From assembly GCA_903874965.1 (NCBI GenBank), contig CAIQUD010000022.1, positions 1 through 61,614 on the forward strand: 61,614 nt of DNA, in the 5' to 3' direction. A model generated the notes under the pieces. It saw only the letters and a list, made by a program, of their open reading frames with translations. It was not told the DNA's origin and searched no databases. Positions 29,242 to 32,666 of the stretch are shown one piece after another. How positions within the stretch are numbered: the first letter of the stretch is position 1; each line of letters opens with the position of its first letter. Position numbers and translations under genes: made by a program. This stretch comes from an uncultured Actinomycetes bacterium (lineage in GTDB: Bacteria; Actinomycetota; Acidimicrobiia; Acidimicrobiales; RAAP-2).

Positions 29242-29871
29242 ATGGCAACTGACACCGGCACTGGGTTGATTGACACACGTGGTGATCGCTATGGAGAAAT
29301 GCTCCTCGTCAACCTCGAAGATGGCAAGTTGACCGCCGAGGTCTTCAACACCTATCAATTGAACGATTGTCCACAAGATCTCTGGGATGCCCTCGACCCT
29401 GTGGCGATCGCAGCCGAGCACGGCGTTGCCATGGCGCAGTTGAATGGTCCGCGGTACTGGCTCATGGACCGAATCGAAAAGCAGCAGGTAGGCATTCCCC
29501 GCCTCGAGACCTTCGGTGGGATCACCATGTTCTTGGCTGCAGTCCTGACACTCGATGCCTCAACGGTCGGCCAGTACTACGTCCCACGAACCGTTGACCG
29601 CAAGGCGGTATGGGGCTTTGAAGCCGGGCGATCGGTGTATGAACTCCATGACACGAATGGTCACAGTTACGTGATGCAGGCACTCTGCACGGGCGTCGAC
29701 CCGAGTTTGAGTGAAGACACACTCGGATCACTTGGTGAGCGTCTGAATCTCCCAGAGGGTTGGACCTACACCGAGCGAGTGCTCGACGAGCCGCTCACCA
29801 TCGACACGACCTATGTCGATGCGACCGTCATCCAAGACGAACTGCAGAACACGTACTCACGCTGGCGCTAA
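29242..29871 (+). CDS. Conserved hypothetical soluble protein (209 aa)
   Basis: I cannot name the family. The ATG follows AAGGGGGACATC. The product is acidic, without signal peptide or TM segment; the motif N-G-P-R-Y-W-L-M-D near 68-76 and repeated short aromatic strands suggest a beta-rich fold. It begins 54 bases after the tRNA and ends in a 4-base overlap with the convergent FAD enzyme gene. No catalytic motif is evident. Confidence 0.65.
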   Translation: MATDTGTGLIDTRGDRYGEMLLVNLEDGKLTAEVFNTYQLNDCPQDLWDALDPVAIAAEHGVAMAQLNGPRYWLMDRIEKQQVGIPRLETFGGITMFLAAVLTLDASTVGQYYVPRTVDRKAVWGFEAGRSVYELHDTNGHSYVMQALCTGVDPSLSEDTLGSLGERLNLPEGWTYTERVLDEPLTIDTTYVDATVIQDELQNTYSRWR

Positions 29872-31135: not shown

Positions 31136-31798
31136 CTAGGAAGCCGAGGTCGCAGCGTGGGCAGCCTCGCGCTCATCGAGGAAGCTCCACCACGCCGATG
31201 CCGAGAGCTCAGCGCCAGCGAAGGCCAACTCGAGGTCGTCGTCGCTCAGGAGCGAGAGGGCTTCAATGGTCCACTCTGCGTGTGAGGACTCAAGGTCGAC
31301 GTGCGCGTCCCAAAATGCGGTGTCGTTGGCATTGAGGCCATACCAAGCACGGAGTCCTTGACCCTTGGTGTCCGCAATGGCGGAACCTTGGACTTCGTAG
31401 GCACCAAGGACGCCAAGGGCAAATGCAGGACTTACGTCGGCCGCGTGCGCATAGGTTGCGACAAGTGCAGCCATTGCGGGCTCTGGCGACGTTGCCGGTG
31501 CATCGAGTGCGGCAGCAAAGCGATCAAAGAGCTCCAAGTGGGCAACTGGGTTACCAAGTTCGTCCGCGAGGTTTTGCGCAACGAGATCTTGAGCGCTGCC
31601 GGCAGGGAGTTGCTCCACCAACGAGGACAAGGTGAGGGGAAGTTGCGCCTCGATCGCACGGTACTGACCGGCGTAAGCAACCAGCTCGTCACGGCCCAAT
31701 TCGCCTGCACTCCAGCGTTGGTAGAAGGGGTGCTCGAGAAGTCGGCGCTCGGAGAGCACAGCGTTGAGACGGGCAGTGATGGTGTCAGTGGTAGCCAT
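31136..31798 (-). CDS. CADD-like / PqqC-TenA-fold diiron protein, candidate self-sacrificing pABA synthase (220 aa)
   Basis: This all-helical heme-oxygenase-like protein aligns with Chlamydia CADD at all functional positions I can compare: metal ligands Glu80, His87, Glu135, His166, Glu170 and His173 (CADD E81, H88, E142, H174, D178, H181), sacrificial tyrosine Tyr26 in H-P-F-Y (CADD Y27) and lysine Lys145 (CADD K152). CADD makes p-aminobenzoate from its own tyrosine, with amine from a lysine, using a dimetal site and oxygen. The ATG at 31798 follows TAGGG; a GTG three codons earlier is possible. Alternatives are other CADD-like oxidases. Function is inferred. Confidence 0.75.
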   Translation of the reverse strand: MATTDTITARLNAVLSERRLLEHPFYQRWSAGELGRDELVAYAGQYRAIEAQLPLTLSSLVEQLPAGSAQDLVAQNLADELGNPVAHLELFDRFAAALDAPATSPEPAMAALVATYAHAADVSPAFALGVLGAYEVQGSAIADTKGQGLRAWYGLNANDTAFWDAHVDLESSHAEWTIEALSLLSDDDLELAFAGAELSASAWWSFLDEREAAHAATSAS

Positions 31799-31856: not shown

Positions 31857-32666
31857 TTAGACCATCAACTCCCCGCCATTGGTGTCAATGGCTTGACCGG
31901 TAACTGCAGAAGAGAGGCTCGACGCCAAGAACACAATCGCGCCGGCAACATCTCGGTCTGAAGGAATGCGTCCGAGTGGAACTGGAAGCGCTAATTCGGC
32001 CAGCACCTCATCTTCGGTAATGCCGCGCGCCTGGGCCGTCATTTGCAGGTACATGTCGACCGATGGTCCAGCCATCCAACCTGGAACGACGGCGTTCACG
32101 CGAATTTGCTTCGGTCCAAGTTCGCCAGCGAGCACCTTCGTCGCCGTTAACAGACCACCTTTGGAGGTTGCATAGCCACCCTGAAGAATCGGTGGCTTTC
32201 TGGCGGCCATTGATGCCACGTTGATGATTGATCCACCACCGGCAGCGGTCAAGTATGGAACGACGGCCTTGCACATCTTGAGAGTGCCGAAGACATTGGT
32301 GGCGGTGATCTTCTCCCACTGGTCAATGTCGACATTGTCGAAGGACTGGAAGACGTCGAAGCGAAACGCGTTATTAACGAGGACGTCCACGCGACCGAAT
32401 GAGGAGGACGCGGTCGCTGCGAGCGCGTCACACTGTTCTTGGCTCGTGATGTCGGTGGCACAGGTTGCGACCTGTCCACCCATTGCCGACACTTCTTCTG
32501 CAACGGCGTCGAGGCTCTTTTGCTTTCGTGCACCGAGCACCAAGGTCGCTCCGTGACTTGCAAGCGCAAGTGCTGCCTGGCGACCCAGTCCGGGTCCGAT
32601 ACCGGAAACAATGGCTACTTTGCCTTCGAGCAAGCTTGAAACGCGTGTTGTTGGTGCATCAGTCAT
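31857..32666 (-). CDS. Short-chain dehydrogenase/reductase (269 aa)
   Basis: Classical SDR: cofactor motif S-G-I-G-P-G-L-G-R at about 21-29, N-N-A at about 98-100, and the catalytic Ser (N-V-A-S-M-A), Tyr and Lys (G-Y-A-T-S-K-G-G). The residue after the second strand (A-R-K) favours NADP(H). V-V-P-G-W and the C-terminal D-T-N-G-G-E are typical. It diverges from a Gfo/Idh/MocA gene; together with the luciferase-like enzyme and the CrtC-like gene they may handle one set of substrates, which cannot be named. Confidence 0.9.
   Translation of the reverse strand: MTDAPTTRVSSLLEGKVAIVSGIGPGLGRQAALALASHGATLVLGARKQKSLDAVAEEVSAMGGQVATCATDITSQEQCDALAATASSSFGRVDVLVNNAFRFDVFQSFDNVDIDQWEKITATNVFGTLKMCKAVVPYLTAAGGGSIINVASMAARKPPILQGGYATSKGGLLTATKVLAGELGPKQIRVNAVVPGWMAGPSVDMYLQMTAQARGITEDEVLAELALPVPLGRIPSDRDVAGAIVFLASSLSSAVTGQAIDTNGGELMV

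What the first reader, a model, noticed from the sequence alone, without database searches (positions are those of the whole stretch)
31136..31798. Candidate self-sacrificing p-aminobenzoate synthase (CADD-like) in an actinobacterium
All six metal-ligand positions of Chlamydia CADD are occupied by ligating residues (Glu80, His87, Glu135, His166, Glu170 for Asp, His173), and both consumed residues, tyrosine (Tyr26) and lysine (Lys145), are conserved with exact ligand-to-lysine spacing (10 residues after Glu135). CADD-type pABA synthesis is known mainly from Chlamydia and a few other bacteria. If real, this organism could make folate without PabABC.
Basis: partly seen in the sequence, partly recalled or inferred. 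Interest (0 to 1): 0.72.

Follow-up and report, generated by a model that had tools for sequence, protein, structure and literature searches.

The report
Self-consuming vitamin-precursor enzyme in Acidimicrobiaceae
A member of a free-living actinobacterial family that appears to lack the usual genes for making the folate building block p-aminobenzoate carries an enzyme with every residue needed to make it by destroying its own tyrosine and lysine, as in Chlamydia, but from an unannotated branch of that family whose aromatic residues near the metal site are rearranged.

Summary
In detail: window 31798-31136, minus strand, encodes a 220-aa protein. Its closest solved sequences are the self-sacrificing p-aminobenzoate (pABA) synthases (CT610/CADD; 9pj4). 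Both consumed residues (Tyr26, Lys145), the second essential Tyr (Tyr42), Tyr46 and the metal-ligand positions are conserved in every intact actinobacterial homologue examined. An AlphaFold2 model (pLDDT 97) matches CtCADD best (Z 29, 1.6 A). In an 85%-complete MAG the only chorismate-binding enzymes are TrpE and isochorismate synthase and the only class-IV aminotransferase is IlvE; folE and a contig-truncated folP are present. Of 61 relatives, 20 have this protein, 19 a pabB-pabC pair, none both; all have DHPS. Distant HDOs in pabBC-bearing relatives lack Tyr26/Lys145. The clade is new in detail: monophyletic, 92-128 bits against NCBI's CADD model (cut-off 200), with a Trp/Phe swap near the metal site (W92 to F/L, F171 to W) and often Glu for the Asp ligand. 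Its Tyr134/Phe162 pair matches a cambialistic NePabS variant. Caveats: no enzyme test, no folate-gene neighbours, two genomes with both systems, about half the family with neither. New variant of a known kind; function inferred.

The parts
31136..31798 (-). CADD-like self-sacrificing p-aminobenzoate synthase candidate, 220 aa (P0001), stop codon included
   Evidence: model pLDDT 96.9, best fold match CtCADD Z 28.7-29.3
31721..31723 (-). codon TAC, Tyr26 = CADD Tyr27 / NePabS Tyr25, inferred sacrificial aromatic donor
   Evidence: alignment; invariant; role from PMC11965152
31364..31366 (-). codon AAG, Lys145 = CADD Lys152 / NePabS Lys159, inferred sacrificial amine donor
   Evidence: invariant
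31526..31528 (-). codon TTT, Phe91, where CADD and NePabS-type enzymes have Trp (CADD W92, NePabS W99)
31310..31312 (-). codon TGG, Trp163, where other CADD proteins have Phe (CADD F171)
31857..32666 (-). SDR oxidoreductase upstream on the same strand, its stop 58 bp before the CADD-like ATG; possible operon partner, relation to pABA not shown
   Evidence: PRK07890 306 bits over cut-off 258; adjacent in L006, L007, L008 and in the vicinity in L013, L016, L018
29868..31097 (-). FAD-dependent amine-oxidase-family protein 38 bp downstream on the same strand; possible operon partner, relation to pABA not shown
   Evidence: Amino_oxidase 131 bits; homologue beside or near the gene in L006-L009, L013 and L157, not in the wider clade

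Best explanation
The gene encodes a heme-oxygenase-like dimetal oxidase that makes p-aminobenzoate by consuming itself once. Inferred steps, by homology to CADD and NePabS: the reduced dimetal site (E80, H87, E135, H166, E170, H173) reacts with O2; an oxidising hole passes through aromatic residues to Tyr26; the Tyr26 side chain is cut from the backbone (leaving Gly) and becomes the pABA ring and carboxyl; the Lys145 side chain gives the amine. The pABA feeds dihydropteroate synthase, so the protein replaces PabABC. Shown here: gene, residues, conservation, predicted fold, no pabB/pabC found, folE and folP present. Inferred: chemistry, metal, physiological role. Further inference: this acidimicrobial branch uses a rearranged aromatic relay (Trp163 in place of the canonical Trp at position 91), and its Tyr134/Phe162 pair, the same as in the NePabS F148Y variant, predicts that it accepts both Fe/Fe and Mn/Fe.
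For: Residue identity and spacing with CADD. TIGR04305 fol_rel_CADD is the top NCBIfam hit, 104.5 bits, E 5.5e-30. A1 profile: CADD and 9pj4 at 1e-51 to 1e-52, next BesC at 7.5e-14. Model fold: CtCADD TM 0.88-0.90, Z 29.3, above HrmI 26.4, PqqC 23.9, UndA 23.0, TenA 22.1. Y26, Y42, Y46, E80, H87, Y134, E135, K145, F162, W163, H166, H173 all invariant in 38 family and order members. No PabB or PabC found in the genome; FolE and the FolP start are present. 20 CADD+ and 19 pabBC+ of 61 genomes, none with both; DHPS in 61/61. Second Chorismate_bind proteins of CADD+ relatives are isochorismate synthases. HDOs picked up by the CADD model in pabBC+ relatives (G042, G020, G044, G060) have kept metal ligands but lack Tyr26/Lys145. 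Residue roles and metal switch: PMC11965152.
Against: No biochemical or genetic test. Score is under the curated TIGR04305 cut-off (104 of 200). The Trp that NePabS needs for full activity (W99) is Phe here. No folate gene is beside it in the window or was seen as a conserved neighbour in relatives. About 95 of 172 family genomes show neither CADD nor an extra Aminotran_4, so lack of pabBC alone does not imply use of CADD; within the 37-genome family sample the exclusion is not significant (p 0.23). Two CADD+ genomes (L017/G082, L052/G080) also carry a fused PabBC-type gene. The MAG is 85% complete.
Confidence: 0.77

Rival explanations
1. It is a CADD-fold dimetal oxidase that acts on an outside small molecule (as BesC, UndA or HrmI do), and Tyr26/Lys145 are kept for structure or substrate binding; pABA is salvaged.
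For: Many family members lack both systems, so salvage may be common in this lineage; score below the CADD cut-off; SDR and FAD oxidoreductase neighbours in this genus could be a small pathway.
Against: All three residues essential in NePabS (Tyr25, Tyr41, Lys159) are invariant at matching positions; more distant HDOs in the same order that keep only the metal ligands lack them; the neighbours are not conserved much beyond the genus.
Confidence: 0.15
2. It is an ordinary TenA, PqqC or other heme-oxygenase-like protein misread as CADD.
For: Pfam TENA_THI-4 match at 27.5 bits; same overall fold.
Against: Profile and fold searches put CADD ahead; no PqqC or TenA NCBIfam match at E up to 1; dimetal ligand set complete.
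Confidence: 0.03
3. It is a pABA synthase, but only a supplementary one: an unseen pabBC lies in the missing 15% of the genome.
For: 85% completeness; L017 and L052 genomes carry both types.
Against: No pabBC pair in any of the four congeners, one 97% complete, nor in any of the 20 CADD+ genomes of the relatives sample.
Confidence: 0.05

Closest known systems
CADD / CT610, self-sacrificing pABA synthase of Chlamydia trachomatis (PDB 1rcw, 8va9)
   Same: Fold, six ligand positions, both consumed residues and their spacing, Tyr at 134 (CADD Y141)
   Different: 29% identity; Glu for the Asp178 ligand, Phe for Trp92, Trp for Phe171, Phe for Tyr170; not clustered with folate genes; host is not an intracellular pathogen lineage
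NePabS (NE1434) of Nitrosomonas europaea; similar solved protein 9pj4
   Same: Tyr25/Tyr41/Tyr45/Lys159 equivalents present, Phe at 162 (NePabS F177), not in a folate synthesis cluster
   Different: Tyr134 instead of F148, Phe91 instead of W99, Trp163 instead of Phe, lacks the extra loop residues seen in 9pj4
Solirubrobacterales/Thermoleophilia CADD-like proteins (found here, L026-L055)
   Same: Sister clade in the tree (95/95), same consumed residues, no PabB-type second chorismate enzyme in the genomes checked apart from L052's
   Different: 26-36% identity; keep W91, F163, D170; have Ile/Val at 134 and Tyr at 162
BesC, UndA, HrmI, PqqC, TenA (heme-oxygenase-like superfamily)
   Same: Fold; the HDOs share the dimetal ligand pattern
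   Different: Act on external substrates; score lower

Membership tests
Self-sacrificing pABA synthase (CADD/NePabS) | Six dimetal ligands, 3 His + 3 carboxylates, at the CADD positions | tested here: met
   alignment; conserved as E/H/E/H/(D or E)/H
Self-sacrificing pABA synthase (CADD/NePabS) | Sacrificial Tyr (Y27/Y25) and Lys (K152/K159), plus essential Tyr41 of NePabS | tested here: met
   Y26, K145, Y42 invariant
Self-sacrificing pABA synthase (CADD/NePabS) | CADD fold | tested here: met
   AF2 model, Z 29.3, rmsd 1.6 A over 207 residues to 1rcw
NCBIfam TIGR04305 (fol_rel_CADD) as an annotation family | Curated score of 200 bits | tested here: not met
   104.5 bits; clade members 92-128, Solirubrobacterales 106-109, while Bacteroidetes and cyanobacterial homologues score 272 and 294. 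It marks a divergent branch, not a missing functional residue
Self-sacrificing pABA synthase (CADD/NePabS) | Radical-relay aromatics as in CADD/NePabS (Tyr45, Trp99) | tested here: inconclusive
   Tyr46 kept; Trp99 equivalent is Phe91, with a new Trp163. Path not measurable without coordinates
Self-sacrificing pABA synthase (CADD/NePabS) | Genome lacks PabABC but has DHPS | tested here: met
   MAG 85% complete, folP cut by the contig end. PabA was not searched (it is shared with TrpG)
Self-sacrificing pABA synthase (CADD/NePabS) | pABA formed from the protein itself with O2 and metal; Tyr-to-Gly and Lys-to-aminoadipate conversion | not testable with these tools
   needs protein chemistry
TenA / PqqC | Family-specific NCBIfam profile match | tested here: not met
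   no TIGR04306 or TIGR02111 hit at E up to 1
BesC | Equivalog score of NF042919 (500 bits) | tested here: not met
   23.3 bits

The most novel reading that the evidence does not exclude
The acidimicrobial clade is a naturally rewired self-sacrificing pABA synthase: the Trp thought to carry the hole in CADD/NePabS has moved from one metal-facing helix to another (F or L at 91 and W at 163 instead of W and F, in all clade members seen), giving a different radical route to the same sacrificial Tyr, with a cambialistic Fe/Fe or Mn/Fe site, and it is the sole pABA source in about a third of a free-living actinobacterial family.
Probability: 0.35. Interest if true: 0.66.

Novelty: new variant of a known kind. 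Interest (0 to 1): 0.52.

Why it matters
The papers held describe two characterised self-sacrificing pABA synthases, CADD and NePabS (PMC11965152, PMC13108848), and the carriers that PMC11965152 names are Chlamydia, Wolbachia, Rickettsia, Chloroflexi, Sphingomonas and Nitrosomonas, not Actinomycetota. Here the enzyme type appears as the probable pABA source in Acidimicrobiaceae and, in a sister branch, in Thermoleophilia, both left unnamed by NCBI's own CADD model. The clade offers natural variants at the positions (CADD Y141, Y170, W92, F171, D178) thought to bear on metal choice and the radical path, so the open mechanistic question can be tested with enzymes that evolution has already made. 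It also means that a standard pathway check would call these organisms pABA auxotrophs.

Tried and rejected
Plus-strand reading of the stretch: has a stop, rejected. Folate-gene neighbourhood as support: none among the annotated neighbours in the window and no conserved neighbour across 26 related regions. Operon with SDR and FAD oxidoreductase as a pathway clue: conserved mainly within the genus, so not used. Conservation of Y26 from the search for related loci alone may be biased, because one search peptide (EHPFYQRW) contains it; re-checked with genome-search hits. pabBC by adjacency alone could miss separate genes; second Chorismate_bind proteins were therefore fetched and compared, and are isochorismate synthases. 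The Fisher p of 9e-5 for 61 genomes is confounded by kinship: within the family it is 0.23, and with 172 genomes 0.006 using a second or low-scoring Aminotran_4 as a rough proxy for pabBC. Plasmid collection: no match. Primary papers on CADD (PMC9522330, PMC12186997) and a review (PMC12335807) are not held.

Full report
WHAT IS THERE. The stretch 31136-31798 is a 220-codon ORF on the minus strand (ATG at 31798). Pfam gives Haem_oxygenas_2 (66 bits) and NCBIfam gives TIGR04305 fol_rel_CADD (104.5 bits, E 5.5e-30, below that model's cut-off of 200). The closest solved sequences are CT610/CADD of Chlamydia trachomatis (E 6e-20) and a second protein deposited as 4-aminobenzoate synthase, 9pj4 (E 3e-18); the next, BesC, is at 3e-4. 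According to PMC11965152, Tyr25, Tyr41 and Lys159 of NePabS are essential, Tyr25 and Lys159 are consumed, and Tyr45 and Trp99 help.

CONSERVATION. Fifty relatives were found in genome contigs, nearly all from Acidimicrobiaceae-type MAGs (45-93% identity) or from Solirubrobacterales and other Thermoleophilia (about 30%), with single Bacteroidetes and cyanobacterial loci. Y26, Y42, Y46, E80, H87, E135, K145, H166 and H173 are invariant in the 48-sequence alignment. Since one search peptide contained Y26, this was repeated on 20 proteins found by the genome search and on 18 further family members: again invariant. One Acidimicrobiaceae locus, L028, is interrupted by a stop and was left out. More remote HDOs that the CADD model picks up in relatives (G042, G020, G044, G060, G054, and a second protein in G005) mostly keep the metal ligands but lack the Tyr26/Lys145 pair; four of these genomes (G042, G020, G044, G060) carry a pabB-pabC pair. 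So within this order the consumed residues go with the absence of pabBC, and metal ligands alone do not.

FOLD AND TREE. An AlphaFold2 model from alignment A1 has mean pLDDT 96.9 and pTM 0.92. Best PDB matches are CtCADD structures (TM 0.88-0.90; Z 28.7-29.3, 1.6 A over 205-207 residues), then HrmI 26.4, PqqC 23.9, UndA 23.0, TenA 22.1. The A1 profile finds CADD and 9pj4 at 1e-51 to 1e-52 and BesC at 7.5e-14. In an IQ-TREE tree of 90 rows the acidimicrobial proteins are one group (100/98), sister to the Thermoleophilia group (95/95), next to Nitrosomonas-, Bacteroidetes- and cyanobacterial-type CADD; most HDOs without Tyr/Lys lie outside, and the place of the long G042 branch is unsure.

GENOME. 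The window lies in a 2.03-Mb, 145-contig MAG, 85% complete. Its two Chorismate_bind proteins are TrpE (TIGR00564 over cut-off) and isochorismate synthase (TIGR00543 over cut-off). Its one Aminotran_4 sits between genes that look like leuB and a citramalate/isopropylmalate synthase and is read as IlvE (these names from the sequence). FolE follows an hpt-like gene on contig C47, and a FolP start runs off the end of that contig. In 61 genomes (own plus 60 relatives) DHPS is found in all, CADD in 20, an adjacent or fused pabB-pabC pair in 19, both in none. The second Chorismate_bind protein of the CADD+ relatives fetched is closest to the own isochorismate synthase, with TrpE fragments in G022, and those sent to NCBIfam score as isochorismate synthase. 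The same is true of the Thermoleophilia CADD+ genomes fetched for this (L179, L181, L183, L185, L196, L197).

LIMITS. Across 172 family genomes, 61 carry CADD, and 60 of these show no extra Aminotran_4 (G221 does, unresolved); 16 without CADD do; about 95 have neither. So absence of pabBC is frequent without CADD, and the mutual exclusion is suggestive, not decisive: p 0.23 inside the 37-genome sample, p 0.006 over 172, both without correction for kinship. Two CADD+ genomes also hold a fused PabBC-type gene: L017's (G082, pabB over cut-off) and L052's (G080). No folate gene lies beside the gene; SDR and FAD-oxidoreductase neighbours are conserved mainly in the genus.

WHAT IS NEW. Every acidimicrobial member has Phe or Leu at position 91 and Trp at 163, where all other Tyr/Lys-bearing CADD-type sequences here have Trp and Phe. 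In the model, 91 lies one helical turn after ligand H87 (helix 87-97) and 163 one turn before ligand H166 (helix 161-182), so both should face the metal side; this is inference, as distances could not be measured. Changing NePabS Trp99 (position 91) to Phe significantly lowers pABA production, so the swap looks compensatory. Position 170 is Glu in most members, where CADD has Asp. Positions 134/162 are Tyr/Phe in all members: the NePabS F148Y single variant, which has the same pair, worked with Fe/Fe and Mn/Fe alike. Thermoleophilia have Ile or Val with Tyr. These actinobacterial branches score 92-128 bits against TIGR04305, while Bacteroidetes and cyanobacterial CADD score 272-294, so that model would not name them.

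VERDICT. Best read as a self-sacrificing pABA synthase of a divergent actinobacterial branch, replacing PabABC in this genus. The chemistry and physiology are inferred by homology. It is a new variant of a known, recently described kind of enzyme.

Noticed in passing
family f1 genomes, e.g. G013 (97% complete, 7 contigs): About half of the family's genomes show neither a CADD-like protein nor pabBC, though DHPS was found in all sampled; their Chorismate_bind proteins are TrpE and isochorismate synthase where checked. pABA salvage or a further unknown route.
   Followed up: partly
L187 (G082:C46) and L188 (G080:C1): Fused PabBC-type genes in two genomes that also carry an intact CADD-like gene.
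   Followed up: partly
L144 (G042:C1:487170-487760): A CADD-related HDO that has kept the metal ligands but lost Tyr26, Tyr42, Tyr46 and Lys145, in a genome with pabBC; function unknown.
   Followed up: partly
L026-L055: A separate Thermoleophilia clade of CADD-like proteins with W/F at 91/163 but Ile or Val at 134; a second natural variant set.
   Followed up: partly
window 29242-29871 (+): 209-aa ORF without any confident Pfam or NCBIfam match.
   Followed up: no
L028: Acidimicrobiaceae CADD-like locus interrupted by a stop; possible pseudogene or assembly error.
   Followed up: no
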